A DNA stretch of 64,000 nucleotides from Salinilacihabitans rarus (GTDB taxonomy: Archaea; Halobacteriota; Halobacteria; Halobacteriales; Natrialbaceae). Positions 6,101 through 64,000 of the stretch are shown here, piece by piece (the stretch's first letter is position 1; each line of letters opens with the position of its first letter). A program made the position numbers and the translations under genes. Location of the stretch: positions 558,001 through 622,000 of the forward strand of contig NZ_CP100762.1 of NCBI RefSeq assembly GCF_024296665.1, given 5' to 3'. The notes under the pieces are model-generated. The model had not been told where the DNA came from, made no database searches, and saw nothing but the letters and a program-made list of their open reading frames with translations.

Positions 6101-6128
6101 AGACCGAAAACCCGAGAAGAGATGAAAC
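3108..6128 (+). CRISPR. CRISPR array 1: 41 identical repeats plus one degenerate terminal repeat
   Basis: The repeats are 37 nt, begin GTCGCAGAGACCAG and end GGGATTGAAAC. The first is at 3108-3144 and the last intact one at 6021-6057. I counted 41 repeat starts separated by 40 spacers of 32-39 nt, none obviously duplicated. A 42nd, 36-nt degenerate copy at 6093-6128 (GTCGCAGGAGACCGAAAACC...GATGAAAC) marks the leader-distal end. With the leader at the cas2 side and GGGATTGAAAC as the 3' handle, transcription is left to right. The apparent ORFs through this region are repeat-read artefacts. Confidence 0.98.
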
Positions 6129-11639: not shown

Positions 11640-11695
11640 GTAGCCAGCACCCTCTCTTATAAAAAGGTTGGCGAATTCAGATAGAATATTTGATC

Positions 11696-24206: not shown

Positions 24207-24391
24207 GAACTATCTGGACAGTCAGGTTCTGACACAATAATGTTTGGCGTGTCTGCAACACGGCGAACGCGGTGTTCGTCGTCGCATGGTAACGGCGAAG
24301 AGAGCGTCCAGAACTGCCGAAAACGCGATATTTCTGTCTCGGGTGGAGGGATAGCGTATACTGCTACATCAAACTCAGGGGGTGTTCCGGC
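24207..24391. promoter_or_regulatory. Divergent integrase / replication-protein promoter region
   Basis: On the minus side, CATTATTG about 26-35 nt upstream of the integrase ATG looks like its TATA box. An imperfect palindrome with arms AACAC (24257-24261) and GTGTT (24272-24276), enclosing GCG..CGC, lies between the two genes. It could be an operator or part of an origin next to the replication gene. A GTATAC element near 24358 may serve the plus-strand gene. Confidence 0.4.
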
Positions 24392-43060: not shown

Positions 43061-43095
43061 TTCGATACACTACCACTGACGGAGGTACAGTATGA
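43057..43095 (+). CDS. 12-aa mini-ORF coupling to the tail-tube gene
   Basis: MIRYTTTDGGTV overlaps the previous stop (ATGA) and ends within the next start (ATGA at 43092). Inside it, GGAGGT at 43081-43086 lies 5 nt before the tail-tube ATG. It is a good Shine-Dalgarno site and rare in this window. The peptide is probably just a coupling device. Confidence 0.4.
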   Translation: MIRYTTTDGGTV

Positions 43096-46745: not shown

Positions 46746-47906
46746 ATGAAGTACCTGTACAACAGCCCGCTCCCCGAGTCGGCAGCAACGGACGAACGCG
46801 ACCGCCTCGGCCAGCAACTCGCCGAGGCGGGTCTGCTCGACGAGGACAGCGCGATGGTCGAGTCGATCGCCTCGCAGGCAGCCGACCTCACGCTCGAAGG
46901 CCAGTACCGCTGGGGCGAGGACGTTTCGACGATGCTCGCGACCGAACTCGACGAACTGTCGGGTGCCTCGACTGGAGCGCTCCCGCTGTACCGCCGCAGC
47001 GGCGGCTACCCGAACGCGGGCTACTACGAGATCGCCAGCGCCGACGTCGCGCCGCTGCACGCGAACGACCGAAGCGTCTGGCGATACACCCTCTCGCTGA
47101 CTCACGCCGGCGCACGTGGCCGGCACTTCCGGGCGATCGAGCCGACCCAGCGCCAACTCGATCACGAGTTCGGGACCGATACGCAGGCGCTCGTCGCCGT
47201 GCCCACCACGGCGAGCAAGGTCCGCTGGTTCGATCCGGAGTCAAAGGCCATCGCGCAGGCGACCACCCTCGAGACGCGGGCGGCCGAGCCGCTTGACGTC
47301 GACGTCTACGACCTAGCCGACGGTGAGGCCGCGGTCGGCGTCAGCGACCCGTGGCTCATCTACGACGTCAGCTACGCCGACGACGTCCGCACCGGCGTGC
47401 GCGCCTACGACACGCGCGGGAACGCGGAGAAGTTCATGACGACGGGCGACGGCAGTCAGGGCCCGCGCCAGTGGCAGACGATCCACTCCACCGGCCACGA
47501 CATCACCAACGAGATCGTCCTCGATAACGGCCTGCTGCGGCTACGTCCGGACGAGACCGCGGGGACGATGAGCGCCGAGATGTGGGACGATACGAACGGC
47601 GTCTGGTCGGACACGGGCCTCGCGGGCACCCAGCCGGCGACGGTCACGCTGCTCGATGTCGACCTGACGGCGGTCTCGATGGTGCGCGACGTCGTCCAGT
47701 TGCTGTTCGACGTCGACGGCTCGCTGTTCGCGTTGAACGCGATCGTCGCGAAGGGCTACGACGAGGTGCTGTTCTCGATCCCGGAGAACGAGACGGGGCC
47801 GATCCCGACCGATCTGGAGACGTGGCTGTCGTCGATCGCCAGTTCGTCGATTACGGATCCGAACGCGGCGAAGACGCTCGTCCCCCGCTCGGAGGTGCGG
47901 CGGTAG
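46746..47906 (+). CDS. Tail/baseplate protein, 386 aa
   Basis: MKYLYNSPLPESAATDERDR ... with several strand-rich sections (VSDPWLIYDVSYADDVRTGV, VDLTAVSMVRDVVQLLFDVD). Its stop codon is immediately followed by the ATG of the fibre gene. It probably belongs to the tail tip and joins the fibre. No clear homologue is recognised. Confidence 0.6.
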   Translation: MKYLYNSPLPESAATDERDRLGQQLAEAGLLDEDSAMVESIASQAADLTLEGQYRWGEDVSTMLATELDELSGASTGALPLYRRSGGYPNAGYYEIASADVAPLHANDRSVWRYTLSLTHAGARGRHFRAIEPTQRQLDHEFGTDTQALVAVPTTASKVRWFDPESKAIAQATTLETRAAEPLDVDVYDLADGEAAVGVSDPWLIYDVSYADDVRTGVRAYDTRGNAEKFMTTGDGSQGPRQWQTIHSTGHDITNEIVLDNGLLRLRPDETAGTMSAEMWDDTNGVWSDTGLAGTQPATVTLLDVDLTAVSMVRDVVQLLFDVDGSLFALNAIVAKGYDEVLFSIPENETGPIPTDLETWLSSIASSSITDPNAAKTLVPRSEVRR

Positions 47907-50900: not shown

Positions 50901-51713
50901 GGCGACGACACGCCGCTGGTCGTCAACGCGAGCTGGGATACCGACCTGCTGGACGTCCTGGTCGAGATCGCCGAGCAGTCCGACTCGCTGTTCGAAGTGC
51001 GGTATAGCGACGCCAACGGCACCGAGATCCACTGGGCGCAGGCCGGCCAGCGCTCGAGCACCGAGGCACCCTCGCTCGCAAACTACTCGGTGACGAAACG
51101 GGGCGATCGCACCTTACGGGCGACCGTTCTCGGTGGGGGCCGCTCGGAGACCGAGACGATCACCGCCGACCTGGGGACGTCGATCGAACTCGAGCACACG
51201 AACCTCATCTCGGGGACTGAGACCGTCCGAGATGCCGACAGCGGCGAGAGGTTCGAATACCTTCAAGACTACACGATCCAGAACACGACCGGGACGATCA
51301 CGTTCCTCGCCGACGGGAGCATCACCGACGGGCAGGAGATCGAGATTTCGTACAACTACAAGGTCTCCGGCACCTACGAGGCCGACGCCTACGACGGCGA
51401 CCCGCGCTACGATCGGACGGCCACGATCTCCGGGATCACGACCGAACGCGGCTGCGAACTTGCGGCGAAACTAATCGTCGACACAGCGGCCGACCCCCGC
51501 TGGGAGGCAGACGTCGAGATTCCGGCGAGCGCGGCCCTCGACGGCCTCCTGGAGGCGCTCGATCTCGAGGGGGTCCCGGGCGAGGCGATGAGCGTCTACG
51601 ACCTGACGGTCTCACCGGAACGCCTCTCGCTGCGGCTGGGCTCGCGGGAGCGCGTCCGGGAGACGATCGAGCAGATCCGCTCGACGGTCGAGACGGCGAG
51701 CGAGCGGGTCTGA
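47907..51713 (+). CDS. Large tail fibre / receptor-binding protein with Gly-rich and FN3 domains
   Basis: A 1268-residue protein, the largest and last of the tail operon. Residues 1-30 are a cap strand. Residues about 30-245 are extremely Gly-rich (for example GAGGGGGGHDSGGDGG and GGGGGWYGGGGGHGATTTGG), resembling poly-glycine-helix adhesins of some phages. Two fibronectin type III-like domains follow at about 255-350 and 450-555. From about 560 on (GWHVELDHPSGQTLTPRILD ...) comes a baseplate-hub or carbohydrate-binding-like region to the end. It probably contacts the host surface. The Gly-rich head may have been acquired separately. Confidence 0.7.
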   Translation: MAEFSKTYDTSGEYTLDLHPNATNIWVQLNGAGGGGGGHDSGGDGGYAEGYLPDSLAAGQTLTIRVGEGGKAESKSSTFNGGAGAGSADGQSARRSASGGGASDIRIGGTTLDDRVAVAGGGGGAGNAAESADTGGGGDGGGLEGNAGGDHFGSTGGGQGGTQTSGGAGEPGADDGVFGAGGAGEDVVYPDYSGAGGGGGWYGGGGGHGATTTGGGGGGSAYIDDLTSATTTTGAGSAGGSVDADGTDGSITIEWDIEVTAPSDLSVDATRDTEVDLSWTEPDPDVDGHEIYRSMSSPVDPATDTLVADLPQGTVSYTDTGINNGTTYHYLIVSYVEIDGSRSTDQSNEASGTTTLPDVDGFVLDGSVQGELLAEEFDAGLNTGQYRIRWKRSVNSTYDAANEATVPFDADPLEYVITNVLDGEKYDVGIRSETADVTGAWHTAAEITALIPASGLQGTSIGQHSVTLGWTVESNFDGSQQIWRRREDGKRDRVYDDPEDGELIATLDTVTESYTDDSDGLYPDREFTYTVRAVTQYVYADTSLTLTTASAGLAQSAAPPRGWHVELDHPSGQTLTPRILDGARLEPRVNDLPRARIPIPRDDAYALQSYEGAPMRVYRDGERQPIDELRDVVIEPGRAELVGVGGTQLERRIQRDVDQEAAHTLADDLITTETSYAAVVDAPAVDEVVDEPLQSASTGTEFAEVFSPKATTPVVFRDGGFENAQTSFLRDTQFYLSGNAGYISDPIYSMGETYTFSASGDGLESTSFSVEYTIPASEVGIAARVSADGSSPAYFRVHVVDDSDGTSLGKATFEDIGYGSSPGWFGDSTQFDDVDYTGWDGGDIPPGEYRLEVECYWDGDLIYFDAASLHDMRYYDSTDFDENGELTDGKALDKPVDYKPVTVESDDAQTVYSVTTGYLDTTWTDTSGAQAIALSNDNGRSWTEVTNATSVSTDFDALGASLRARVTFDGYEPDGVRSQSPRYGYAPQRVESYELSFDGDDTPLVVNASWDTDLLDVLVEIAEQSDSLFEVRYSDANGTEIHWAQAGQRSSTEAPSLANYSVTKRGDRTLRATVLGGGRSETETITADLGTSIELEHTNLISGTETVRDADSGERFEYLQDYTIQNTTGTITFLADGSITDGQEIEISYNYKVSGTYEADAYDGDPRYDRTATISGITTERGCELAAKLIVDTAADPRWEADVEIPASAALDGLLEALDLEGVPGEAMSVYDLTVSPERLSLRLGSRERVRETIEQIRSTVETASERV

Positions 51714-51842: not shown

Positions 51843-53281
51843 GGTTCCAATTCCGTTCTGGGTTTCTCCCTGCTGCGACCTACCGACGCGGCCGGTAGAT
51901 ACACCGCCAATCGCCCGTTTCAATCCCGTTCTGGGTTTTCTGACTCCTGCGACACAGCCACAGTCACGGCGGCATCAGCTACGATTAGTTTCAATCCCGT
52001 GCTGGGTTTTCTGACTCCTGCGACTCCGCGATAAGTTCGTTGTCGGGGCCGGGAACAGCTAGTTTCAATCCCGTGCTGGGTTTTCTGACTCCTGCGACAG
52101 CCGGTCGACGAGCGGACGAACGCCTATCGACCGACCGACGCCGGCCGGTTTCAATCCCGTGCTGGGTTTTCTGACTCCTGCGACATGGACTCGCTGACCC
52201 GTTCGCGAGCACTGGAGGCTGTTTCAATCCCGTGCTGGGTTTTCTGACTCCTGCGACGGTCACCTCCGAACGGCAGGTCGAACCCCCAGATGAGTTTCAA
52301 TCCCGTGCTGGGTTTTCTGACTCCTGCGACCGCCTCGGCGTCGCTCTCGTCTTTCACGAGGCCGGCGTTTCAATCCCGTGCTGGGTTTTCTGACTCCTGC
52401 GACATCGTCGGGACGTCGTTGGTGGCGACGGTCTGGCGTTTCAATCCCGTGCTGGGTTTTCTGACTCCTGCGACAATCAGTGACCACGATCGTCTCGGTC
52501 AACTCCGACAGGTTTCAATCCCGTGCTGGGTTTTCTGACTCCTGCGACCTCGCGGATGACTTCCGCGAGCATCCCGACAAGATCGTTTCAATCCCGTGCT
52601 GGGTTTTCTGACTCCTGCGACTTCGGCGGACGTGGGCGACCGACTGTTACTATAGTCTGTTTCAATCCCGTGCTGGGTTTTCTGACTCCTGCGACGGACT
52701 CACACGGGCGCTCCTCGCCGTTTTGGTGTGGGTTTCAATCCCGTGCTGGGTTTTCTGACTCCTGCGACGAGTGGGGCCACGACGAGACCGAGTTACTCGA
52801 CCGGTTTCAATCCCGTGCTGGGTTTTCTGACTCCTGCGACACGAGGATGTTAACCGAGTCGCATTCGACCTCGAACTGTTTCAATCCCGTGCTGGGTTTT
52901 CTGACTCCTGCGACTTCGACACTGAGCAGCGCGACGATGACGGCAACTTCGTTTCAATCCCGTGCTGGGTTTTCTGACTCCTGCGACCGCGATTGTCGTC
53001 GCCGCTCTGATTATAGGAGAGTTGTTTCAATCCCGTGCTGGGTTTTCTGACTCCTGCGACACACGCGGCTCCCGGCGGTCGACGAGCCGGACGAGCTGTT
53101 TCAATCCCGTGCTGGGTTTTCTGACTCCTGCGACTACATCGGTTGCATTGATCCCGGTGAATCTTAATGGTGTTTCAATCCCGTGCTGGGTTTTCTGACT
53201 CCTGCGACAATCGTGCCGGACAGTGACGAACCGTTTGTTGACGAGTTTCAATCCCGTGCTGGGTTTTCTGACTCCTGCGAC
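51843..53281 (-). CRISPR. CRISPR array 2: 19 repeats plus one degenerate terminal repeat
   Basis: Repeats are 37 nt. Read on the minus strand they begin GTCGCAGGAGTCAG and end GGGATTGAAAC, differing from array 1 only at positions 8-11 (GAGT for AGAC). The leader-proximal repeat is 53245-53281. Eighteen copies are identical, and the one at 51917-51953 has a single change. The leader-distal copy at 51843-51879 is strongly degenerate. Spacers are 34-37 nt except one of 49 nt at 52099-52147. Leader and csa3 lie to the right, so transcription runs right to left, opposite to array 1. Confidence 0.97.
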
Positions 53282-53392
53282 TGGGGGTCGAAATACGTCT
53301 ATGCAAACTATAAACGTCTATCATCACATCATTTTCGGCTAGCAGTTCGTGGACCGGGGCTGTACACAGGGTTCAAAAAGGTTGACGAAGAG
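53282..53392 (-). promoter_or_regulatory. Leader of CRISPR array 2
   Basis: Read on the minus strand it shares with leader 1 the blocks CTCTTCGTCAACCTTTTTG and TGTACAGCCCCGGTCCACGA (53349-53390) and the repeat-proximal CGTATTTCGACCCCC (53282-53297). These blocks mark promoter and integration signals kept in both leaders. The middle part differs fully between them. It starts right at the csa3 stop codon. Confidence 0.78.
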
Positions 53393-54043
53393 TTATTCTC
53401 GAGTAACCTCCGAGAGCAACCACCCCGTCGGTGTTACCTCGACGTACTTTGCTCGCCCACTGTTTTGAGTCGTGACCAGACCGTCGTCCTCGAGGACGGC
53501 GACGTGCCGGGCAATCGTACTCGAGTCGTGATCAGTTTTACTGGTGAGTTCAGAGATCGATAGCTGTTGATCAGCCATCGCGAGCGCCCGTAACGTCGGA
53601 CGTGCATGCTCAGGAATTGTTGCGGTAAGGTGGGGAAGCTCAATCTCCGCCACCTGTTGGTCGATATCGGTGTACTGGAACGCCTGTTCGATACGGTGAG
53701 CATACATCGTGGCAGCCATCGAGAGCGGAAGGAACACCTCGCGTGCTCCACCGCCGAAATTGACGATCACCGAACCGTCGGCGTCGTCAATGATCGCACC
53801 ACACTGTTGCACCGCGTCGGGAACGTCGCTCGTATCGATGCGCTCAACTGCAACCTTCACGCCCGGCGTGATCTTCTGGAGCGTCTCTCGCACATGATCG
53901 ACCGCAGCCATTGCACGATCGTCTTCACGCTCCGTTTCGGGCCGCAACAGTCGAACGACGTCGCCGTCCTCAAGTCCGTTACGCAACACTGGTCGCGTAA
54001 CCCGCGTCTCGTCAAACCCCAGCGTCGACACGTACGTCCGCAT
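53393..54043 (-). CDS. csa3: Csa3-family CARF/winged-helix regulator
   Basis: A 216-residue protein. Residues 1-135 form a CARF-like Rossmann domain (MRTYVSTLGFDETRVTRPVL; VIVNFGGGAREVFLPLSMAA as the ligand loop). Residues 145-216 form a winged helix (ISELTSKTDHDSSTIARHVA, then VLEDDGLVTTQNSGRAKYVE). Csa3 proteins sense cyclic oligoadenylate or other signals and regulate cas operons or CRISPR transcripts. The gene diverges from cas6, and its ATG has a TATA-like CTTTAG about 26 nt upstream. Its terminator region doubles as the leader of array 2. It may control both. Confidence 0.85.
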   Translation of the reverse strand: MRTYVSTLGFDETRVTRPVLRNGLEDGDVVRLLRPETEREDDRAMAAVDHVRETLQKITPGVKVAVERIDTSDVPDAVQQCGAIIDDADGSVIVNFGGGAREVFLPLSMAATMYAHRIEQAFQYTDIDQQVAEIELPHLTATIPEHARPTLRALAMADQQLSISELTSKTDHDSSTIARHVAVLEDDGLVTTQNSGRAKYVEVTPTGWLLSEVTRE

Positions 54044-54220
54044 TGCTGAATTCGTCGTGGAGAGCGACTAAAGGTGTACCGACAGGTCGACGGTCAGCGA
54101 CTCGGTCCGTCGGTGTCCCTCACTTCGTCGCGGTGCAACTGACCGGTACTAGTCTCATCGCTGTACAAGAAATATCTAATCTCCGATATCTTTATCACCT
54201 CCCGGTCGGTAGAGAGTGCC
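54044..54220. promoter_or_regulatory. Divergent csa3 / cas operon promoter region
   Basis: TTTATC at 54191-54196 lies 25-30 nt before the cas6 GTG, so the cas operon should start leaderless. On the other strand CCTTTAG (54066-54072) serves csa3. An inverted repeat with arms ACCGAC (54077-54082) and GTCGGT (54108-54113), with inner arms CGACGG/CCGTCG, sits next to the csa3 promoter and could be a Csa3 binding site. This is suggested by symmetry only. Confidence 0.45.
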
Positions 54221-55090
54221 GTGTCATCGCAGCACGCCCGACCGCAAACAGCACTCCGGCGCGTCGACTTGACGCTTCGAGCCGAGTCGACGTTTCCAGT
54301 GCCATACTCCGACGGCTACTCGGTGTATGGTGCCTTGCTCGATGCCCTCGATTCGGTTGACGCCGACGTGAGCCAGCGCGTCCACGACGCGCCTCTGGGG
54401 AGTGTCCACAGCAGTGGGCTACTCGGTCCATTCGGGAACAGCAACCGTCCCTATCACAAGTCTGTCCGGAACGGTGAGCAATACCGGCTCTCGCTCGGCA
54501 TCGTCGACCCGTCGGATGTCGAAATCTTCCAGGCGCTTGTCAACGCCGTCGTCCTCGAGGGTAACTCGCTCGAACTTTCCCACGGGTTGCTCCACGTCGA
54601 GACCTTCGAAAGCGAGAACGAGACCCACGAGGAGATCCTTGGACGTGCATCACGCGTGGACGATCCGACGCTCGAAATGCGGTTCCAGACGCCGACCTGC
54701 ATCGAGGAAGCCGGCGACGTGACGACGATGTTCCCGCATCGGATTCCAGTGTTTACCTCGCTACTCGGAAAGTGGAACCGGACCGCACCCGAGGAACTCG
54801 AGTTGGATCTCTCACAGGAGGAGATTGCCGGAAACGTGCTTGAGAAACCCGATCCTGATCGCTACGACACCCACTCGGTACTGGTGAGTCGCGGTGAAAC
54901 CGACGATAGGGAGACCCGAAGCATCATGAAGCAAGGGTTCACCGGCCTGTGTGAGTACGAGTTCAAGGACGCGAGTGAGGCGGTAGAGAACGCCGTAACG
55001 ACGCTTGCGCTGTTCGGGAAGTACTCAGGTGTTGGAAGTGCCGTCGCGCGAGGGTGTGGAGACGTGGAGGTGACTATCTCCGATGACTGA
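54221..55090 (+). CDS. cas6: Cas6 crRNA-processing endoribonuclease
   Basis: A 289-residue RAMP protein with GTG start. It has the ferredoxin-like beginning VDLTLRAESTFPVPYSDGYS and a Gly-rich C-terminal loop (TLALFGKYSGVGSAVARGCG). Cas6 cuts pre-crRNA within each repeat to leave an 8-nt 5' handle; the GGATTGAAAC end of both arrays fits. It is the first gene of the cas operon and its end overlaps the cas10d start by 8 bp. One enzyme would have to handle both repeat variants. Confidence 0.88.
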   Translation: MSSQHARPQTALRRVDLTLRAESTFPVPYSDGYSVYGALLDALDSVDADVSQRVHDAPLGSVHSSGLLGPFGNSNRPYHKSVRNGEQYRLSLGIVDPSDVEIFQALVNAVVLEGNSLELSHGLLHVETFESENETHEEILGRASRVDDPTLEMRFQTPTCIEEAGDVTTMFPHRIPVFTSLLGKWNRTAPEELELDLSQEEIAGNVLEKPDPDRYDTHSVLVSRGETDDRETRSIMKQGFTGLCEYEFKDASEAVENAVTTLALFGKYSGVGSAVARGCGDVEVTISDD

Positions 55091-57611
55091 CGACCGCTCG
55101 GACGAGGACGTCCTCGATTCAATCCTCGGAAATCTCCGTCCACAGTCGGGCGGCGGGACCGAAGTCGAGCGATCGGTGGAGGAGACGGTGCTGGAAGACT
55201 TCCGGACATCCGTCGATCCTAGAATCGTCGACACTGGGTGGGGATTCGAGGCTGCGAAGAGTGTTGAGTTGGGGAAAACGGACCAGTCATTACTCAACCA
55301 TGTCAGGAACGGTGTATTCGTACTCGCACAGTTGAATGAGGCCGCCCGATCGCTCGGCGGATACACACTTGACGAAGCAGATCTGCGAGCTACGATCGCA
55401 TTGTTCACGATCCACGATATCCACAAGCTCAATTCCGAGCGTGACGTGGACCCCGAATCCCGGTTCGACATTTCGGCTAAGGAAGTGCAACAGTACGTCG
55501 AAGCGTTTGGACTCGACGACTTTGCGCCGGAATTGACTACCAAGGATTTCCGATCATGTGCGATCGACCACCATGACGACTGGACGGCCAACTACGACCA
55601 GACGACGCGCCGGTTCGACGATCTGCGTCCGTTCGTACGAGTTGCGGACGCATTTGCATCGTGTGACACACCCGAAGCAGCAACGACTAAATCTGTCCAG
55701 ACAGCGATCAACCGCGCCTATCTCAAATCGGAATTTGAACTCCGCTGCCACGTCATCGATGACGTGAAAGGGGTCTTGACGAATCTCCTGAACGCGGCGG
55801 TCTCCGAACGCTTGGGCGCGTTCGACTATCAGCCGGTGGCGATCTATCAGGACGGATGCGTCTACCTCGCGCCAGAAGATGTGAATCGGCCAGAGGTAGA
55901 TCAAACACTGGTCGATGAAATTTTAGAGCAACTTCAAGAAAATACACAGAAATCACATTCCGCATTCGCGTCTGCAAGCGAACTTAGGTCGAATCTGTCT
56001 ACCCGATATGCGAAGGATTTCTACGGGATCAATGATCAAGATTTCTTCTACGCTGGTGCAGAAACCGTGCTTGCTGCGGTAGCTCAAAAATCTGTTTCGG
56101 ACGCAAATCCAGATGAAGAGCCCACCGAAAACATGGTAGAGACGATGGAGAGTCTTGAGGAATATATCCCACTAAATATTGAACGCACGCGTAGGCCAGT
56201 CGGAATAGCAAGATTCGTATATACCGTACGGCGTGCGTTCGTCGATCCACTGATTGAAGATAATGCAGATTCTCAACTGAAAGAAACATGTAAGATATTA
56301 TCCATCTCTGATGAAGTTCTTGAGGGGTTGCTGAAAGCATCTGAAGAGGATGATAATGATAAGTCAGACTTCTCTTTGACTGCCGGAGGAAGATGGGACT
56401 ATGCTTACGGAATTGGACAAGCTCTGCTCAACGAAGATTTGACCGATCCAGTTAAATTGAAAGAACGAGCCAATTCAGGTCTCAGTCGGCGTGCTGAAAA
56501 TTGGGCCGAGATCGTCGAAGACTTCCATGCCGGAAATCTACGCGAAGAACTCGCAGCGTACCTATCTGACGTGGTATCTATCGATGGATGTCCAATCGCT
56601 GTAGGCAGCGAGACCCTCAGTGACCCATTCGAGGAATATCATAATACCCGGCGGGGGAAAACGTGTGTGCTTTGCAACCGTGGTACAACGAGTACGCGAA
56701 AGGCCGATATCGAGACCCCTAAGTCACTAACAACACTCAAAGCGGGGTATTCCAATCATGTGCCAGTGGATGCCGGCAAACCCGACAATCTGCTCACTTG
56801 TATTCCATGTCAGATAGAACTCTCGTTACGGGAAACCGGTGCATCTCAAAGAGAAGAGGGTCGACTCTTTGTTCACCTGATCCCTGATTACTTCTACACA
56901 CCGCTATCGTGGCGTAGCTACAGCGACGTCATGAGCGAATTTACTGGGGAGAGCCAAATCGAACTCGGACGGCTGGCGGAAGCAATACTGTGGCTGACGG
57001 ACGACCCTGAGGCGGCGAACGTTGAGGGATTCGAGAACGCGCTCTTCGATGAGGAAAGCGGTCGTCCGATGGTTGAAACGCTCGATCAGGGATTTAATCC
57101 GGGAACGCAGTACGGTGCTCGCACTCTCGGGTACTACAAACCGCAAGACAACGAGGCGGAATTCCAGTTCTTCGGTGTGTATGTTGCCCTTGCTGTCGCA
57201 GCATACGCCGGTCTTCGAGTATATGTCTCGGAGTCTCCGATCCCCGACATCAGGGGTCGAGACTTCCAGACGTACGCTCGCGTTGGGGCCGGGTTTACAC
57301 AGGTCCATGATTTCTACAGCACAGAAATACCACTGTCGCGAGTTGAATCCCGATTGCGAGCTGCGTCAGCACTTGTCAAATTAGGGTATGGAGCGATGGA
57401 TAGTAACAATAAAAAGCGAAACGACGCGCTGTTCGCGAAGTTCCTCCGGGTAACGCGGAATCAGCTGCTCCCCGGATCACACCTGCTCAAGCGCATCGCG
57501 CAGGCCGATGATGGCAGTGACGCTCGCTATCTGCTGGAGGAAGCACGGGTGCTCGATCAGGAAACTGGTATAGATTCGACAACTAACACCACCAAAATAC
57601 ACGACAAATGA
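55083..57611 (+). CDS. cas10d: Cas10d (Csc3), type I-D large subunit with HD nuclease
   Basis: An 842-residue protein. The N-terminal HD nuclease domain is intact: His73 (LLNHVRN), His111-Asp112 and His114 (TIHDIHK), His163-164 (IDHHDD) and Asp189 (RVADAF). A zinc site is formed by Cys528, Cys531, Cys573 and Cys576 (CVLC ... CIPC). The chain ends after a helical domain, about 100-150 residues shorter than usual fused Csc3. The missing C-terminal portion follows as the separate gene at 57608. It is the signature gene of type I-D and supplies the DNA-cutting HD activity that Cas3' lacks. Confidence 0.92.
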   Translation: MTDDRSDEDVLDSILGNLRPQSGGGTEVERSVEETVLEDFRTSVDPRIVDTGWGFEAAKSVELGKTDQSLLNHVRNGVFVLAQLNEAARSLGGYTLDEADLRATIALFTIHDIHKLNSERDVDPESRFDISAKEVQQYVEAFGLDDFAPELTTKDFRSCAIDHHDDWTANYDQTTRRFDDLRPFVRVADAFASCDTPEAATTKSVQTAINRAYLKSEFELRCHVIDDVKGVLTNLLNAAVSERLGAFDYQPVAIYQDGCVYLAPEDVNRPEVDQTLVDEILEQLQENTQKSHSAFASASELRSNLSTRYAKDFYGINDQDFFYAGAETVLAAVAQKSVSDANPDEEPTENMVETMESLEEYIPLNIERTRRPVGIARFVYTVRRAFVDPLIEDNADSQLKETCKILSISDEVLEGLLKASEEDDNDKSDFSLTAGGRWDYAYGIGQALLNEDLTDPVKLKERANSGLSRRAENWAEIVEDFHAGNLREELAAYLSDVVSIDGCPIAVGSETLSDPFEEYHNTRRGKTCVLCNRGTTSTRKADIETPKSLTTLKAGYSNHVPVDAGKPDNLLTCIPCQIELSLRETGASQREEGRLFVHLIPDYFYTPLSWRSYSDVMSEFTGESQIELGRLAEAILWLTDDPEAANVEGFENALFDEESGRPMVETLDQGFNPGTQYGARTLGYYKPQDNEAEFQFFGVYVALAVAAYAGLRVYVSESPIPDIRGRDFQTYARVGAGFTQVHDFYSTEIPLSRVESRLRAASALVKLGYGAMDSNNKKRNDALFAKFLRVTRNQLLPGSHLLKRIAQADDGSDARYLLEEARVLDQETGIDSTTNTTKIHDK

Positions 57612-58048
57612 AAGAGACAAGCGATACAATTGCAGAACTCGCAGCGCGTTCGTTCGACGTGATACGGCCCGCGCCGGGAAACGACAAACCGTACGCGATC
57701 GAACGTGTATTCCGCGAGAGCGTCAAGGCAGTCAAAGAGTTCGGACCGCTTGAAATTTCCCGACAGGACGCGATCGATGCAGTTGCCGGTCGAGTCGGGA
57801 AAGTTCCCGAACGAAGTGAACAGGTCTATCGCGTCCCATACGAAGACAGTGATGTCGGTGGCGCTTACAATGAGCGCGTCGAACGATATGCCGAATTCTT
57901 CGTCGATGAGGTCCTAATCGGGATGTTCGACGGCAAGCCGTCGCGGTTGAAGCGCCGGGCGAACAATCTCGCAGACGGGTTCTACGCGGCGACGCTCCGG
58001 CTGCAGCGCGAACAGTTCGAAAACGACTCCGCAAATACCGACAACTAA
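57608..58048 (+). CDS. cas11d: Separate small subunit, Cas11d-like (C-terminal part of Cas10d)
   Basis: A 146-residue helical protein. MKETSDTIAELAARSFDVIR, then a region with YAIERVFRESVKAVKEFGPL, ISRQDAIDAVAGRVGKVPER and VERYAEFFVDEVLIGMFDGK, ending in RLKRRANNLADGFYAATLRL. This matches the order of the C-terminal part of fused Cas10d/Csc3 proteins, which is known in bacterial type I-D to be made additionally as Cas11d from an internal start. Here it has its own gene with an ATGA overlap, so it should be the stand-alone small subunit lining the crRNA backbone. Confidence 0.75.
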   Translation: MKETSDTIAELAARSFDVIRPAPGNDKPYAIERVFRESVKAVKEFGPLEISRQDAIDAVAGRVGKVPERSEQVYRVPYEDSDVGGAYNERVERYAEFFVDEVLIGMFDGKPSRLKRRANNLADGFYAATLRLQREQFENDSANTDN

Positions 58049-59043
58049 TGATCGACCAAGACACCTATCCCGAACTTGAACCTGGTACTGTTCCCGCAGA
58101 CGAGATGACGCTCCGTCCTCGGAGCAATTTCGTTAATCTACTCGTCCTTCGTGAACTCGAGAGTCATGCAGTTTTCACGACCAATGGAGAGGACGCTGAC
58201 ATCGCAACTGTTCCCCTCGGTACCACTAATGGACCTCAGGACTACGCTCCCGGTCTCATGTTCATGCGAAAACAGACCGGGAGCGACCGACGCTTCGGGA
58301 AAGCCCTACAGCGCGACCTCGACCTCTTCGATGATGACGAAGACGAGTGTACGATGCAAGTTAACGAGATGTGTCAAGACTGCATTGAGTGCATCCTCTA
58401 TGGAAGCGCCGCGAGTAACAATGAAGGGAACGACATTTCGATCACTTCGCGGGTCATGTACGACACGGCCTACTCATTACGCGACGCGAGCGTCGTAATT
58501 GACGAGAAGTTCCAGAATGCGCCCGGTGACGATTTCGCCAAATCCGCGGAGGCAACGATCCGGGAACCCGACTTCTTCGAGCCCGGAACGATGTTTCCCA
58601 GCGTCGTGACGCTTCGAGACGCGACTCCAGCAGAGGTCGCGTTCGTACTCGGAATTACTGCCAAGAACAAACGCTATGGAGCGACAACGTCCCGACTCGG
58701 ACGAGTCAATAACCGAATTCTCGGCATGTATGTTGGGAGCGAAGAAGGGCCAGCGAACCTAGAGTTGACGCGAGAAGCGATCTCGCGGTTGCGAGACGAT
58801 GAACGGACCGATTACGATTCGGTTACTGACGTGGTGATGGCCGAAACACTCGATCCGTCACGCACCGCAGATCACGTTCAGGCCGCGTTTGAGGGCGCTA
58901 TCGACGCCGATGGCTTAGACCTAGAACGAGTGTCCGATGGAACGGTCGCCGAGATTCTCGATAAGGCGACGAGCGAGGAGCTCGGCGACTTGCTGGCAGA
59001 GCAGCGAGAACACTCGAGGACATTCCTCGATCAGGCGGAGTAA
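58048..59043 (+). CDS. csc2: Csc2 (Cas7d), type I-D backbone subunit
   Basis: A 331-residue RAMP protein of the Csc2 family. RPRSNFVNLLVLRELESHAV at the start of the fold, then QRDLDLFDDDEDECTMQVNE, a Cys-rich loop (MCQDCIECILYGSAASNNEG) and VTLRDATPAEVAFVLGITAK, NKRYGATTSRLGRVNNRILG. Csc2 multimerises along the crRNA guide in the type I-D Cascade. The gene starts in the TAATG overlap with cas11d and ends 4 bp before csc1. Confidence 0.9.
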   Translation: MIDQDTYPELEPGTVPADEMTLRPRSNFVNLLVLRELESHAVFTTNGEDADIATVPLGTTNGPQDYAPGLMFMRKQTGSDRRFGKALQRDLDLFDDDEDECTMQVNEMCQDCIECILYGSAASNNEGNDISITSRVMYDTAYSLRDASVVIDEKFQNAPGDDFAKSAEATIREPDFFEPGTMFPSVVTLRDATPAEVAFVLGITAKNKRYGATTSRLGRVNNRILGMYVGSEEGPANLELTREAISRLRDDERTDYDSVTDVVMAETLDPSRTADHVQAAFEGAIDADGLDLERVSDGTVAEILDKATSEELGDLLAEQREHSRTFLDQAE

Positions 59044-59047
59044 AGGC

Positions 59048-59755
59048 ATGAAGGTTCTCGAAGCGATTCTTCGGACGCGCGGGGAAGTCACGTTCACCTC
59101 GCGAGAGGTCGGACGACTGGCCGATACGGAGCCGTACATCCTCAACACGGCTCTCTACTACGCGCTGGGTCTCGCGAGTGGTCGCTACGTGGATACCTCA
59201 TACGAACCGACTTATATCGAGGACACTGCGGATATCACCGACATCTACGTCTCGCCTGCTGCGCCAACCGACGAAGCCGCACCGAACTACGTGACGACCA
59301 CCTACAATGCGACGCGCGACGAATACGCGGAGGTGAACTACTCGGCTCAAGATGACCCGAACGCCAAACAGAACCTGCCTTCATATGGGCGACGACGGTC
59401 ACTCGCTCACGGGACGCCGCTCCGGTTTTTCATCATCCCGCGCGGACGATCGGTAGCCGACCTCGAACGACGGTTGCCGAGCTACGTCAGGCTGGGCAAA
59501 AAACGAGGGAAAGCCAGACTCGATGTCAAACGACGCCCTTCAACCCGACAAACCGGAAAGTTTAGACTGAATCATCCGATCGGCGCGTACGATCATCCCG
59601 ATCCTCCAGAGGGTAATGTCATTACGAAGGCGATGAAGCCCACGCCACTCGTGATGCAGGGCGATTACACCGGCGAGTACATCAGCATCGACCGGGGCGA
59701 GAACGACCCTATTCACTTTCCTGCCGGACTCATCTTCCTCGCGACCAAACGATGA
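59048..59755 (+). CDS. csc1: Csc1 (Cas5d), type I-D crRNA 5'-handle subunit
   Basis: A 235-residue protein. MKVLEAILRTRGEVTFTSRE then LADTEPYILNTALYYALGLA is the typical Csc1 opening; RGRSVADLERRLPSYVRLGK and PTPLVMQGDYTGEYI follow. It caps the 5' end of the crRNA and takes part in PAM recognition in type I-D. The start at 59048 lies 4 bp after the csc2 stop; a longer upstream frame would overlap csc2. The stop overlaps cas3' by ATGA. Confidence 0.9.
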   Translation: MKVLEAILRTRGEVTFTSREVGRLADTEPYILNTALYYALGLASGRYVDTSYEPTYIEDTADITDIYVSPAAPTDEAAPNYVTTTYNATRDEYAEVNYSAQDDPNAKQNLPSYGRRRSLAHGTPLRFFIIPRGRSVADLERRLPSYVRLGKKRGKARLDVKRRPSTRQTGKFRLNHPIGAYDHPDPPEGNVITKAMKPTPLVMQGDYTGEYISIDRGENDPIHFPAGLIFLATKR

Positions 59756-61851
59756 CAACGCTCAATCTCGCCGGCGTTGCACTCCGAACGTACGATCATC
59801 CCTATCCGTTCGACGTCGCTCCCTTCGCCCACCAGCGGGAAATGTTGTGGTTATTTCAAGAACGCGATCGATTTGTCGCGGTAAACGATAGTCCAACTGG
59901 TGGTGGAAAAACATCGTCGTGGCTGGCCCCAGTCCTCGACGAACAACTCGACACAATCGCGATCTACCCCACCAACGCGCTCATTGCAGATCAGCAAGAT
60001 GCCATCCAACGTGCAGTCGACGATGCAGTAAATCACGACGTTGCCGTGTTGAGAGTGACCGCGGACAGGCTAGCTGAAAGGAGTGACCAGTTCGCTCCTA
60101 ATTCGCATGGAGGAGTCCTTGACGACTGGCTTCAACAGGAGGGACGCTACAACGATCAGCGTATCCTGTTGACGAACCCAGACCTTCTCGTGATGATGCG
60201 TCGCAACCTCTATCGAAGAGGATCACGTGAATACAAGGACTTCGAAGCCGCGATCGTCGATGAATTTCATCGAGCCGGTCGCAAGGAGCAGAACACTCTT
60301 CGCTTTCTGCTTGACGAGATGCAAGCGGAAGACGAGGAGATCGTCGCGCTCCGGAAGGTGGCGTTTCTTAGTGCGACACCTGACGAACGCCAAGAACGAC
60401 TTTTCGAACACGCGATGGAGGCACCGTACGTGCGGATCACCAAAGAAAATTGTTGTGAACTGGCATCGTTCACCGATCCACCCGGCGACGATTGGTACGG
60501 AGTAATGCCACCTATCGAACTCAATGTCCGAACGGCGCCAACCTTCGGCACGGGTGAGACACTCAAAAGCGATGAGGAGGAGACGCTGTCGTTCTGTCGC
60601 AGGGGCAGAACGGTCATCATGCTCGACGGTATTCACGAGGTCGAAGCCGTCCACAGGTGGCTCCAGAACACGCTTGACGGCCGCGTTGAACGGATTGACG
60701 GCTTCGACAGGGGCGACAAGCGCGAAAAACTCAATCAGTTCGACGTTTTGGTCAGCAATTCGGCCGTTGAGGTCGGTATTGACTTCGATGTTGACCGAAT
60801 TCTCTTCGCCGGTCATGACAAGGATAGCTTTCTCCAGCGACTCGGACGGTTGCGCTCGGAGACCTGTTTACGGAAAGCCCGGTGTTACGTGCCAGCAGGG
60901 ATTGCCGATATGTTGTCGAACCACGACAGCGAGACACTTACCCGACAGGAACTTGATGAGTTGCTGGACGACGCATACCCCGAACCACGTCGTCCCGAGA
61001 CATTCGACGCACGATACTCAGCGGCAGAGGCGTTCGAACACCTCAATGATCGGCTACGAAACGCTCCGCCAGACGAAGTGCAAGAGATCAAGCGATCGAC
61101 ACTTGACCGTATCAAACGGCACTTTGGCATCGGATCGGAAACGGAGTTTTCGCTCCGAGATATGGAGGCGTTCACCGGTGCCCTCAACTGGCGAGTACTG
61201 ACGAAACTACAGTGGTACCGAGGAGATAGCATTCAGTCACTCGTCTACGACCGGACGAGAGAGTACGTCACCGTCTACGACCTGTTTTACCTCCTTAGGT
61301 ACGGCAACGTAGAATTCGTCGACCGCGGAACGTTCGAGCGGATCATTCCAGATAGACACAGAGACAGTATCGACCGTAGCCATCGATATGTCGACGGGTT
61401 CTGTATCTACGACGGGACGATCCAGACCAACGACGAAGGTTACGGTCGCAACGTGTATTTTACGGGTGGCACGCTGAACGCGTGGCTGGACCAGACCTCG
61501 AATACAGGACGGAAACCACAGACAAAATCTGGGTTGCGAATCGACGTCGATCCGAATGGGACTGGATCGCGCGTTCCTTCAATCACGAAGGTCAACGAAC
61601 GACTTCGCAAACGAGGTGAGCGAGTTGACGACGAAGAAGAAGGATTACTGTGTTATGCTGTTAGTGGCTCTCCTAGTCGCGTGAAACGACAGTACGGCCT
61701 CGACGACTTTTTCTTCCTTTATCCGATTCAGGTACAGAACAAAGCTGTGCATAGTCTCGCTATCGGAACTGATGCTCTCTACCTTCATTGTCACGTTCTC
61801 GAACAAAAGAACCGGCTGACGGATGATACCGGATCTATTAACTCCATATGA
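59752..61851 (+). CDS. cas3: Cas3' helicase of type I-D, complete
   Basis: A 699-residue superfamily 2 helicase without HD domain, as in type I-D where the HD nuclease is in Cas10d. Motif I is SPTGGGKT (residues 47-54), motif II DEFH (169-172), motif III LSATPD (205-210), motif V SAVEVGIDFD and motif VI QRLGRLR. The C-terminal 280 residues are an accessory domain. It would unwind target DNA after Cascade binding. It overlaps csc1 and cas4 by ATGA, so it sits between the interference and adaptation genes in one operon. Confidence 0.93.
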   Translation: MTTLNLAGVALRTYDHPYPFDVAPFAHQREMLWLFQERDRFVAVNDSPTGGGKTSSWLAPVLDEQLDTIAIYPTNALIADQQDAIQRAVDDAVNHDVAVLRVTADRLAERSDQFAPNSHGGVLDDWLQQEGRYNDQRILLTNPDLLVMMRRNLYRRGSREYKDFEAAIVDEFHRAGRKEQNTLRFLLDEMQAEDEEIVALRKVAFLSATPDERQERLFEHAMEAPYVRITKENCCELASFTDPPGDDWYGVMPPIELNVRTAPTFGTGETLKSDEEETLSFCRRGRTVIMLDGIHEVEAVHRWLQNTLDGRVERIDGFDRGDKREKLNQFDVLVSNSAVEVGIDFDVDRILFAGHDKDSFLQRLGRLRSETCLRKARCYVPAGIADMLSNHDSETLTRQELDELLDDAYPEPRRPETFDARYSAAEAFEHLNDRLRNAPPDEVQEIKRSTLDRIKRHFGIGSETEFSLRDMEAFTGALNWRVLTKLQWYRGDSIQSLVYDRTREYVTVYDLFYLLRYGNVEFVDRGTFERIIPDRHRDSIDRSHRYVDGFCIYDGTIQTNDEGYGRNVYFTGGTLNAWLDQTSNTGRKPQTKSGLRIDVDPNGTGSRVPSITKVNERLRKRGERVDDEEEGLLCYAVSGSPSRVKRQYGLDDFFFLYPIQVQNKAVHSLAIGTDALYLHCHVLEQKNRLTDDTGSINSI

Positions 61852-62456
61852 TAGGATCGGGATTCAGGGATGAACTCGTGCACGTTAGTGCGTTACAGGA
61901 GTTCGTTTATTGTTCACGACGATATTACTATCATCGATATCACGATCAGATCGGTTCGCCGTTTGAGCTCGTTGACGGGCGATCGAAACACGCTACCCAG
62001 TCACGCCGTGGCGGTTGGACCACGGAACGGTACTTCCGATCGGAAGAGCTCGGATTGCATGGAAAGATTGACCTCGTCGAGAGTGATCATGGTTCGCTTA
62101 CCCCTGTCGAGCGGAAACGGGCCGAGAGTGGGGATTACTATCTGAGTGATGAGGTTCAGTTGGCTGGATACTGTATGTTGCTTGAGTCTGCGATCGATGA
62201 GCAAGTCAATGTCGGATATATTTATCTCTACTCGACAGACGAACGACACGCGATCCGAATTTCGGACAACCATCGACAAACCGTGGAAGAAACCGTCTCC
62301 CGCATCAACTCGATGACTGTCAGTTCGATCCCACCATTCACGGATAATCCGAGTAAATGCGACGGCTGTTCTGCACGCGAATACTGCCTACCGGCTGAAA
62401 CCGCCCGAATGGAACATGATAAAGTCCGTGGCACAGGCTGGGAGGACCAGCAATGA
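61848..62456 (+). CDS. cas4: Cas4 (overlap copy of 1106-1714)
   Basis: Identical protein to the gene at 1106-1714, with the four-cysteine cluster (Cys22, 171, 174, 180) and the Asp75/Glu88/Lys90 site. In this copy the upstream gene is the complete cas3', which confirms that cas4 belongs to the same operon as the interference genes. It counts once if the molecule is circular. Confidence 0.95.
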   Translation: MIGSGFRDELVHVSALQEFVYCSRRYYYHRYHDQIGSPFELVDGRSKHATQSRRGGWTTERYFRSEELGLHGKIDLVESDHGSLTPVERKRAESGDYYLSDEVQLAGYCMLLESAIDEQVNVGYIYLYSTDERHAIRISDNHRQTVEETVSRINSMTVSSIPPFTDNPSKCDGCSAREYCLPAETARMEHDKVRGTGWEDQQ

Positions 62457-63457
62457 AAGAATCAGAAGCGATCTTCGAGGATTCGGTCATCTTCGTGACC
62501 AAACAAGGTACCCAAGTCCGGATCGACGGGGGGCAGGTCGTGATCTGGAACGTCGACGCCGAGGAAGATGAAGACCGAAAATTAGCTGGATATCCGATCG
62601 AGCAGCTAGATACAATCAACGTCTTCGGCGGGGTCAACTTCTCGACGCCGTTCGTCGCGAAGGCAAACGAACACGGGATCGTCCTCAACTACTTCACCGA
62701 GAACGGGAAGTACCGAGGAAGCTTTGTTCCTGAGAAGAACACAATCGCGGAGGTCCGTCGAGCACAGTACGCCCTCTCGAGGGATGATGAGATCGCTATC
62801 GCTCGACAGATGATTCAGGCGAAGGTTCGCAACGCACGAACGCTGCTCTCCCGGAAGGGCGTGTACGGAACGGATGTCCTCAAGGACCTTGGTGTCCGGG
62901 TGGAGGACGCGACGACGAAAGACGACATCCGTGGCGTGGAGGGTGAAGCTGCAGAGCGATACTTCCAGCGACTCGACGAGACGCTCATCGACGGCTGGAC
63001 GTTCGAAAAACGGACAAAACGACCACCGGAAGATCACATCAACTCGTTGTTATCACTGACCTACGTCTTCATGAAAAACGAGGTACTGGCTGCACTTCGA
63101 CAATATAATCTTGATCCGTTTCTCGGTGTGTTACACGCTGATCGCCACGGCCGCCCATCACTCGCATTGGACCTCCAGGAGGAGTTTCGACCGATCTTCT
63201 GCGATGCCTTCGTCACGCGGCTAGTCAACCGAGGGACGATTACCCACGACGACTTCCGGAAGGACAACCGACTCAACGGCGACGCGTTCAAGACCTACTG
63301 CGCGAAGTTCGACGAGTTCATGAAAGAAGAACTGACCCACCCACACTTTGAGTACACCGTCACGCGACGTAAGGCAATTCGCCAGCAAGCAATTCTCTTG
63401 CGAAAGACAATCACTAGCGAGCTCGACAAGTATCACTCATTTTCGTTTGTACGATAA
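62453..63457 (+). CDS. cas1: Cas1 (overlap copy of 1711-2715)
   Basis: Identical to the gene at 1711-2715, with Glu163, His228 and Glu243 in place. It overlaps cas4 and precedes cas2 by 2 bp. It is the same gene if the molecule is circular. Confidence 0.96.
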   Translation: MKESEAIFEDSVIFVTKQGTQVRIDGGQVVIWNVDAEEDEDRKLAGYPIEQLDTINVFGGVNFSTPFVAKANEHGIVLNYFTENGKYRGSFVPEKNTIAEVRRAQYALSRDDEIAIARQMIQAKVRNARTLLSRKGVYGTDVLKDLGVRVEDATTKDDIRGVEGEAAERYFQRLDETLIDGWTFEKRTKRPPEDHINSLLSLTYVFMKNEVLAALRQYNLDPFLGVLHADRHGRPSLALDLQEEFRPIFCDAFVTRLVNRGTITHDDFRKDNRLNGDAFKTYCAKFDEFMKEELTHPHFEYTVTRRKAIRQQAILLRKTITSELDKYHSFSFVR

Positions 63458-63459
63458 CC

Positions 63460-63732
63460 ATGCGTCTCGTGATCGCATACGACGTCAGCGACGATACAAA
63501 TCGCCGCCGTGTGTATCGGACGCTACAACGATACGGTGCTTGGCAACAGTACAGTGTCTTCGAACTCGAGATAGACAGTGCCCAACGCGTCGAGCTGGTA
63601 GACGAACTTGAGTCATACATCAATTCTAGCGACGGAGACCGAATTCGGATCTATCGACTCTGTAGTGCCTGCCAAGACGCGACGACGGATATCGGGAGTG
63701 AGCCACCCGACGAACAGTCGAACGTAATCTGA
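63460..63732 (+). CDS. cas2: Cas2 (overlap copy of 2718-2990)
   Basis: Identical to the gene at 2718-2990, including the N-terminal Asp8 strand. It is followed by the same leader and the first repeats of array 1. Confidence 0.96.
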   Translation: MRLVIAYDVSDDTNRRRVYRTLQRYGAWQQYSVFELEIDSAQRVELVDELESYINSSDGDRIRIYRLCSACQDATTDIGSEPPDEQSNVI

Positions 63733-63849
63733 CGGTCTCTCTTCGTGAACCTTTATTAACTCACTGTACAGCCCCAGTCGACGAATGCAGGTGAGGATTT
63801 CAGACCACAAGAAACGTTTTTGATTCCTCTGGTTGTATCTCGACCCCCT
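63733..63849 (+). promoter_or_regulatory. Leader of CRISPR array 1 (overlap copy)
   Basis: Same bases as 2991-3107, with the TATA-like TTATTAA at 63753-63759 and both leader-conserved blocks. Confidence 0.8.
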
Positions 63850-64000
63850 GTCGCAGAGACCAGAAAACCCAGCACGGGATTGAAACAATTATCTGCTTGC
63901 AGGTACGCCCATTCGCGCCAATCGTCGCAGAGACCAGAAAACCCAGCACGGGATTGAAACCCTACTGGATCAGCTATACGATGCCCTCGCGCGAGGACGT
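63850..64000 (+). CRISPR. Start of CRISPR array 1 (overlap copy, cut by window end)
   Basis: Repeats at 63850-63886 and 63924-63960 with one full 37-nt spacer between them, then a 38-nt spacer and the first two bases of a third repeat. It is the same as 3108-3258. Confidence 0.97.

What the first reader, a model, noticed from the sequence alone, without database searches (positions are those of the whole stretch)
51843..64000. Complete type I-D CRISPR-Cas system carried by a tailed-virus-like circular genome
Seen in sequence: csa3, cas6, cas10d, a cas11d-like gene, csc2, csc1, cas3', cas4, cas1, cas2 and two arrays (continuing to 6128 in the circle) lie on the same 60.7 kb molecule as terminase, portal, capsid, tail tube and fibre genes. 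All catalytic residues checked are intact. The 15 kb locus sits between the end of the tail operon and the accessory region. Known: viral CRISPR systems have been described, but mostly small or partial and mostly in bacterial phages; a full adaptation-competent type I-D set on an archaeal tailed-virus genome would be unusual. Inference: it serves inter-virus conflict or host protection during lysogeny.
Basis: partly seen in the sequence, partly recalled or inferred. Interest (0 to 1): 0.95.

Follow-up and report, generated by a model that had tools for sequence, protein, structure and literature searches.

The report
Complete CRISPR immune system inside provirus
A virus lying dormant in the chromosome of a salt-loving archaeon carries a complete, learning-capable CRISPR immune system, the only one in the cell, in a genome slot where related viruses carry other, unrelated CRISPR systems or none.

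Summary
The gene content is real; the "60.7 kb circular genome" is not what the assembly shows. The window lies in a 3.62-Mb haloarchaeal chromosome holding two identical head-to-tail copies of a 60,742-bp provirus. They are bounded by three copies of a 19-bp att core that splits a 412-aa host gene. All ten I-D genes and two arrays (60 spacers) lie inside the att-bounded unit, between the tail-fibre gene and the accessory/integrase module. The cas genes are intact and under purifying selection. The genome has no other Cas1, and repeats of this sequence occur nowhere else in it.

Relatives give the wider result. The slot after the tail fibre is a cargo bay. In about 30 related proviruses it holds CRISPR material in 7: complete I-D (here), two complete unrelated I-B systems, a variant I-D with cas1/2/4 but no array, an adaptation-less I-B, and two arrays without detected cas genes. 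In all four with cas1, it is the genome's only Cas1.

One spacer matches tnpB of an IS carried by tailed haloviruses phiH and ChaoS9; no self-targeting was found. Proviral I-B systems are published, one very probably the G138 relative seen here. Complete I-D on a provirus, and repeated capture in one slot, I did not find described. Function is untested.

The parts
24260..24278 (.). 19-bp att core ACGGCGAACGCGGTGTTCG at the junction of the two tandem provirus copies (attP-like); the outer copies are at genome 521518 and 643002
   Evidence: flanks joined at the core give an uninterrupted 412-aa ORF
22908..24206 (-). tyrosine integrase at the right end of the element, next to att
   Evidence: Pfam Phage_integrase E 1e-19
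24392..26941 (+). RepH-like replication protein
   Evidence: phrog_17376 E 4e-116; about 30% identity to RepH of phiH and PhiCh1
34222..35814 (+). terminase large subunit
   Evidence: phrog_38, Pfam Terminase_6C; 57-59% to phiH and PhiCh1 TerL
35834..37759 (+). portal protein
   Evidence: phrog_12 E 2e-31
38101..39672 (+). head maturation protease
   Evidence: phrog_3017, phrog_34096; matches the phiH and PhiCh1 prohead protease region
39675..40613 (+). major capsid protein
   Evidence: phrog_1623, phrog_70; 32-33% to phiH HP32 and PhiCh1 gpE; 85% to the G138 provirus
43092..44000 (+). minor tail protein
   Evidence: phrog_18409 E 5e-120; 63.5% to virus BJ1
46746..47906 (+). virion-region protein g028, marker used for the slot survey
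   Evidence: phrog_18406; 36-47% to BJ1, CGphi46 and HJTV-4
47907..51713 (+). tail-fibre-like protein (1268 aa), the left border of the cargo slot
   Evidence: phrog_18315 E 2e-180; ends 131 bp before the first repeat of array A
51844..53281 (-). CRISPR array A: 20 repeats (37 nt; distal one degenerate), 19 spacers, leader at the cas-proximal end
53393..54043 (-). csa3, CARF-HTH regulator, divergent from the cas operon
   Evidence: TIGR01884 E 2e-25
54221..55090 (+). cas6d, crRNA-processing RNase
   Evidence: PADLOC Cas6d E 7e-135; TIGR01877 below its cut-off
55083..57611 (+). cas10d/csc3, large subunit with N-terminal HD motif (HDIHK)
   Evidence: TIGR03174 E 2e-145, profile 1-785; motif
57608..58048 (+). 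cas11d, small subunit as a separate gene
   Evidence: TIGR03174 profile 825-946, E 2e-23
58048..59043 (+). csc2/cas7d, backbone
   Evidence: TIGR03157 E 8e-87
58937..59755 (+). csc1/cas5d
   Evidence: TIGR03159 E 1e-51
59752..61851 (+). cas3' helicase (GGGKT, DEFH, SAT, QRLGR motifs)
   Evidence: TIGR03158 E 2e-85; motifs
61848..62456 (+). cas4
   Evidence: TIGR00372 E 1e-29
62453..63457 (+). cas1d, the genome's only cas1 (present once per copy)
   Evidence: TIGR04093 E 6e-112, 374 bits against a cut-off of 385; TIGR00287 above cut-off; PF01867 over the whole genome finds only the two copies
63460..63732 (+). cas2
   Evidence: TIGR01573 E 6e-16
63850..64000 (+). start of CRISPR array B (runs on to genome 624870; the full copy of the other provirus is at window 3108-6128): 42 repeats, 41 spacers
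3580..3615 (+). spacer b7 (in the other copy's array B), matching tnpB of ISH12-type elements
   Evidence: 33 of 34 nt to phiH and ChaoS9, E 4e-5; also about 30 haloarchaeal genomes

Best explanation
This is a temperate tailed virus of a Natrialbaceae-type haloarchaeon, integrated twice in tandem by its own integrase. It carries a complete type I-D CRISPR-Cas system as cargo in a variable slot directly after the tail-fibre gene. During lysogeny the provirus most likely expresses the system under Csa3. Cas1-Cas2-Cas4 add spacers next to the two leaders, which both face the cas genes. Cas6 makes crRNAs, and the Cas10d-Csc1-Csc2-Cas11d complex with Cas3' destroys matching DNA of competing viruses and mobile elements, protecting both host and provirus. 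The slot is a cargo bay into which unrelated CRISPR systems and other defence genes have been captured several times in this virus lineage. Shown: anatomy, att ends, gene intactness, purifying selection, slot conservation, sole Cas1 of the genome, one spacer target. Inferred: expression, acquisition, interference, excision and infectivity.
For: Provirus: tandem copies, 19-bp cores and an interrupted 412-aa host ORF; integrase and head/tail genes. CRISPR: all I-D genes; 60 spacers with degenerate repeats only at the leader-distal ends. Selection: dN/dS about 0.05-0.22 for the nine operon genes against Halorhabdus amylolytica and G362 wherever dS is finite; catalytic motifs present by eye. Sole immunity: no other Cas1; the repeat occurs only inside the element. 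Slot: relative G138 (MCP 85%, TerL 89%) has a complete I-B system there; further CRISPR in the same slot in G052a, G323, G119, G116 and G032. Horizontal origin: Cas10d groups with H. amylolytica and G362 from other families, not with I-D of its own host family. Target: b7 hits tnpB in phiH and ChaoS9; no self hit over the part of the spacer set searched against the whole host genome.
Against: Only one of 60 spacers has a convincing target, an IS gene also found on plasmids and chromosomes, so 'inter-virus' is weak. No expression, packaging or excision data. No I-D gene was found in IMG/VR or phage records, so no virion-associated example exists here. No tape-measure gene was recognised, so particle formation is not certain. 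The identical tandem copies could be an assembly product of an episome plus one integrated copy.
Confidence: 0.78

Rival explanations
1. Misassembly or a chromosomal CRISPR locus adjacent to a provirus: the cas genes are not part of the mobile unit.
For: The closest I-D relatives (G362, H. amylolytica) showed no gene of this virus within about 40 kb; the two copies are 100% identical, which can arise in assembly.
Against: Virus genes lie on both sides inside the att ends, including the integrase on the far side. G138, G052a and G323 show CRISPR at the same point in independent assemblies. The whole unit, cas included, is present in both tandem copies.
Confidence: 0.04
2. Counter-defence weapon: as in phage ICP1, the CRISPR system mainly destroys host-encoded anti-virus islands or resident elements during infection, rather than protecting the lysogen.
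For: Targets are mostly unknown; the one target, tnpB, is also common on host chromosomes and plasmids. ICP1 carries its CRISPR in a swappable locus (PMC11656645).
Against: The element is temperate; long arrays with old degenerate ends and the sole Cas1 of the genome fit a standing immune memory of the lysogen. No spacer was found to hit a defence island.
Confidence: 0.13
3. Dead cargo: a decaying provirus with a residual, non-functional CRISPR locus.
For: No tape-measure gene recognised; only 1 of 60 spacers with a target; no virion record.
Against: All cas ORFs are intact with low dN/dS. Identical tandem copies with clean att cores imply recent site-specific recombination. By contrast some other I-D loci carry stops in cas10d (G175, G368, G299).
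Confidence: 0.08
4. A CRISPR-associated transposon of type I-D or another integrative element rather than a virus.
For: I-D Tn7-like transposons exist (PMC11656645).
Against: Cas3' and the Cas10d HD motif are retained; the unit is bounded by tyrosine-integrase-type direct repeats and has a full head gene set.
Confidence: 0.01

Closest known systems
Provirus CP095390_pro, nested complete type I-B (PMC11705971); very probably the G138 relative seen here
   Same: Related head-tailed provirus (TerL 89%, MCP 85%) with a CRISPR-Cas system and two arrays in the same slot after the tail fibre; the host's only Cas1.
   Different: Subtype I-B, 30-nt repeats, about 135 spacers. Identity with G138 rests on array counts (75 repeats in one array against 74 published spacers) and repeat length; accession not confirmed. 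The shared slot and subtype swap were not found in the passages of that paper read here.
Provirus-encoded I-B systems of Haloferax lucentense, Natrinema salifodinae and Halobacterium GSL-19 (PMC12596717)
   Same: Effector cas genes and arrays on haloarchaeal proviruses, proposed to act in inter-virus competition.
   Different: They lack cas1, cas2 and cas4 and are I-B; this one is I-D and adaptation-complete. G119 here resembles their type.
Vibrio phage ICP1 type I-F (as described in PMC11656645)
   Same: Complete phage-borne CRISPR in a locus that holds another system in sister phages.
   Different: ICP1 is bacterial, I-F, and its CRISPR targets a host PLE; here an integrated archaeal provirus, I-D, targets mostly unknown.
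Haloarchaeal I-D loci on chromosomes and plasmids (Halorhabdus amylolytica; 58-kb plasmid NZ_CP035122 of Halorussus pelagicus)
   Same: Same gene order, flanking arrays and separate cas11d; 59-90% protein identity over the operon genes.
   Different: No gene of this virus was found within the stretches read around them.
phiH, PhiCh1 (Vertoviridae) and BJ1/CGphi46
   Same: TerL, portal and RepH relate to phiH/PhiCh1, minor tail and g028 to BJ1/CGphi46.
   Different: phiH (read whole) and PhiCh1 (first 50 kb read) have no annotated CRISPR-Cas; the present element is a mosaic not assigned to a family here.

Membership tests
CRISPR-Cas type I-D | cas10d with csc1 and csc2 (signature effector genes) | tested here: met
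   TIGR03174, TIGR03159 and TIGR03157 all above cut-off
CRISPR-Cas type I-D | Cas3' helicase without HD domain, HD in Cas10d | tested here: met
   TIGR03158 hit, no Cas3'' hit; HDIHK motif in the Cas10d N-terminus; motifs read by eye
CRISPR-Cas type I-D | adaptation module cas1d-cas2-cas4 and cas6 | tested here: met
   Cas1d model 374 bits against its own cut-off of 385, general Cas1 model above cut-off
CRISPR-Cas type I-D | arrays with leader-end growth | tested here: met
   similar leaders at the cas-proximal ends, degenerate repeats at the distal ends; growth itself not observed
CRISPR-Cas type I-D | crRNA production and DNA interference | not testable with these tools
   needs RNA-seq or plasmid assays
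Head-tailed (Caudoviricetes) provirus | TerL, portal, protease, major capsid, tail genes in canonical order | tested here: met
   tape measure not recognised
Head-tailed (Caudoviricetes) provirus | integrase and att direct repeats interrupting a host gene | tested here: met
Head-tailed (Caudoviricetes) provirus | forms particles or excises | not testable with these tools
   no reads or induction data
Adaptation-less proviral I-B systems (PMC12596717) | type I-B effector, no cas1/cas2/cas4 | tested here: not met
   I-D effector and cas1/2/4 present
Tn7-like I-D CAST | transposase genes and disabled Cas3 or Cas10d nuclease | tested here: inconclusive
   Cas3' and HD motif retained, ends are integrase-type; no dedicated tns model search was run

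The most novel reading that the evidence does not exclude
A lineage of haloarchaeal tailed proviruses has a dedicated cargo bay after the tail fibre into which complete, adaptation-competent CRISPR-Cas systems of different subtypes (I-D, variant I-D, two unrelated I-B) have been independently loaded, so that the virus supplies the host's only adaptive immune system and can exchange it as a module.
Probability: 0.55. Interest if true: 0.78.

Novelty: new variant of a known kind. Interest (0 to 1): 0.66.

Why it matters
Complete, adaptation-capable CRISPR systems are rarely reported in viruses under 200 kb (PMC11656645). Here one sits on an apparently recently mobile provirus and is the only Cas1-bearing system of its cell, with relatives that carry different systems in the same slot. 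That makes two questions testable in culturable haloarchaea: whether temperate viruses move adaptive immunity between hosts as a module, and how a virus with its own Cas1-Cas2 avoids acquiring spacers against itself when it replicates.

Tried and rejected
- Circular 60.7-kb genome: rejected; tandem integration in a chromosome.
- Split Cas10d as a special feature: rejected; most of the closer haloarchaeal I-D loci examined have cas11d as a separate ORF.
- Self-targeting or mutual targeting: our spacers against the element and flanks, and spacers of G138, G052a and ten I-D loci against the element and sister proviruses, gave only weak, chance-level matches.
- Whole-genome self-targeting: the query left out spacers a16, a19 and b27-b41 and searched the rest; only the arrays themselves matched.
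- Targets in IMG/VR: 22-nt exact searches with three leader-proximal spacers found nothing; b7 found only a 55,145-bp contig, the length of ChaoS9.
- Other weak phage and plasmid spacer hits (Streptomyces tape measure 6e-3, Haloarcula HTH 2e-3) treated as noise.
- PAM: targets of b7 have mostly GCG, once GTG, just 5' of the protospacer; one target cannot define a PAM.
- I-D on viral records: none found.
- Provirus length check of G138 against 62,752 bp by att search: nothing found.
- First gene caller picked antisense ORFs in GC-rich DNA; replaced by an acidity-trained one.
- First Cas10d tree had five rows on the wrong strand; rebuilt.
Full report
What the window is. The window is G000:C1:558001-622000 of a single-contig 3,622,565-bp genome. 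The apparent 60.7-kb circle is a tandem repeat: sequence 521518-582278 recurs without a mismatch at 582260-643020, offset 60,742 bp. The 19-bp surplus is a core, ACGGCGAACGCGGTGTTCG, present three times at 521518, 582260 and 643002 and not elsewhere in the 240 kb examined; the sequence outside is unrelated to the element ends and rises to about 70% G+C. Joining the two outer flanks at one core gives an uninterrupted 412-aa ORF (it looks like a TctA-type membrane protein, my reading, no model search), which the element truncates. A tyrosine integrase lies at the right end. This is a tandem double provirus. Two identical 60.7-kb copies with clean cores mean recent site-specific recombination, or an assembly of an episome plus one integrated copy; reads would be needed to tell which. 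Window position 24260 is the copy boundary, so the structural and cas genes of the finding belong to one copy.

The virus. TerL, portal, maturation protease, major capsid, minor tail and a RepH-like protein are recognised. TerL is 57-59% identical to phiH and PhiCh1, the capsid 32-33%; the minor tail protein is 63.5% identical to BJ1. It is a mosaic head-tailed virus. No tape-measure gene was identified. The host family is probably Natrialbaceae: genome G032 of the same family contains a 58,487-bp contig, the length of PhiCh1 of Natrialba magadii, an inference.

The CRISPR-Cas locus. All ten genes hit expected models. The Cas10d profile is covered by two ORFs, 842 aa (1-785) and 146 aa (825-946); most of the closer I-D loci show the same split. 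Motifs read by eye are intact: Cas3' GGGKT, DEFH, SAT, QRLGR; Cas10d HDIHK; Cas1 E-H-D context; Cas4 cysteines. Arrays A and B have 19 and 41 spacers. Similar leaders lie at the cas-proximal ends and degenerate repeats at the far ends, so both arrays point away from the cas genes. Against H. amylolytica and G362, dN/dS of the nine operon genes is about 0.05-0.22 where dS is finite; csa3 is more diverged (dN 0.45-0.52). Twelve I-D loci in other genomes have the same gene order, and most show the same flanking arrays, so the system itself is ordinary; its location is not. In the Cas10d tree the proviral protein joins H. amylolytica and G362, of other families, with full support, while I-D systems of the host's family lie elsewhere.

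Sole immunity of the cell. Cas1 (PF01867) occurs in this genome only in the two provirus copies, and this repeat only inside the element.

Relatives and the slot. Of 394 genomes of the class, 24 have Cas10d and 19 this capsid protein; only this genome has both. The closest provirus, in G138 (capsid 85%, TerL 89%), has a Cas1 at the corresponding place. Reading that region gave a complete I-B system: cas1b, cas4, cas3, cas5b, cas7, cas8b, with two arrays of 30-nt repeats, 75 copies in one and about 60 in the other; its cas2 and cas6 were not confirmed by a model here. This very probably is CP095390_pro of PMC11705971 (74 and 61 spacers, 30-bp repeats). I then used g028, just upstream of the tail fibre, as marker: 43 of 394 genomes match. 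About 30 proviruses had fibre and downstream module on one contig. CRISPR material lies in the slot after the fibre in seven: this one; G138; G052a, an I-B system with cas8, 7, 5, 3, 4 and 1 and 123 repeats, only distantly like that of G138 (Cas8 32%, Cas1 57%); G323, a variant I-D with cas1, cas2, cas4, cas6 and csa3, Cas10d of PADLOC family PDLC02022 and no array found; G119, I-B cas8/7/5/3 without cas1; G116 and G032, arrays without detected cas genes. In G000, G138, G052 and G323 the provirus-borne Cas1 is the genome's only one. Two slots in G389 hold other defence-like genes: methylase plus helicase of HMA/Pbe type, and a SIR2 protein. In the present element the fibre stop is 131 bp from the first repeat; in G138 fibre-like sequence ends about 200 bp from an array. 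The limits of this survey: cas detection used I-B and I-D queries only, and the sample was 394 genomes.

Targets. Spacer b7 matches tnpB of an ISH12-type element with one mismatch over 34 nt in phiH and ChaoS9 (E 4e-5), and similar tnpB copies in about 30 haloarchaeal genomes and several plasmids. The other 59 spacers have no convincing target. One search covered 43 of the 60 spacers against the whole host genome and found only the arrays themselves; all 60 were tested against the element and about 118 kb of flanks with no convincing hit.

Mechanism. The best-supported reading is that the provirus expresses a standing immune system in the lysogen that excludes rival elements, benefiting host and virus. 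The anatomy, the sole-Cas1 pattern and the single IS target fit. Counter-defence of the ICP1 kind is not excluded, since targets are mostly unknown. How the virus avoids self-acquisition is open; the separate Csa3 regulator is a candidate control point, by inference only.

Prior art and novelty. Haloarchaeal proviruses with adaptation-less I-B systems (PMC12596717) and one with a nested I-B system (PMC11705971) are published; complete CRISPR on phages is known from ICP1 and jumbo phages, and surveys find it rare below 200 kb (PMC11656645). I found no report of I-D on a provirus or of repeated capture of different subtypes in one slot, in an open-access library only. I therefore rate it a new variant of a known kind.

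Noticed in passing
G323:C2:170943-180487 (locus L150): A related provirus (integrase 76% identical) carries a divergent I-D system with cas1, cas2, cas4, cas6 and csa3 but no CRISPR array was found in the 80 kb read. Its closest large-subunit relatives are on plasmids of Halostella, Salinibaculum and Halarchaeum (88-89%).
   Followed up: partly
G052:C1:3413160-3430400 (loci L172, L173): Type I-B system with adaptation genes and a 123-repeat array directly after the tail fibre of another related provirus; the only Cas1 of that genome.
   Followed up: partly
G389:C1:2362373-2377452 and 4017567-4036151 (loci L154, L156, L157): The same slot in two other proviruses of one genome holds other defence-like genes: a SIR2-domain protein (PDC-S65) in one, HMA/Pbe-like methylase and helicase in the other.
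   Followed up: partly
G000:C1:2624915-2671633 (loci L165, L166, L220): A second, related provirus region in the same host: tail-fibre part 83% and g008-g011 homologues up to 88% identical; no cas genes. Large unknown ORFs sit beside its fibre.
   Followed up: partly
G386:C1:3910079-3911200 and 3949267-3950388: The marker gene g028 recurs with identical scores 39,188 bp apart (and once near the contig start), which suggests another tandem provirus.
   Followed up: no
G138:C1:3161700-3162068 (locus L072): A second copy of the 3' end of the tail-fibre gene lies next to the CRISPR array, like an alternative fibre cassette.
   Followed up: no
G116:C47:192952-194436 and G032:C1:1647603-1649342: CRISPR arrays in the proviral slot without detectable I-B or I-D cas genes nearby; no Cas1 in either genome.
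   Followed up: partly
window 52099-52147 (spacer a16): One spacer is 49 nt against 32-39 nt for all the others.
   Followed up: no
window 11322-12154: Accessory region of the provirus has a HalOD1-domain protein and a pyridoxamine-oxidase-like protein; a 58% identical homologue of the latter lies in the host's second provirus region.
   Followed up: no
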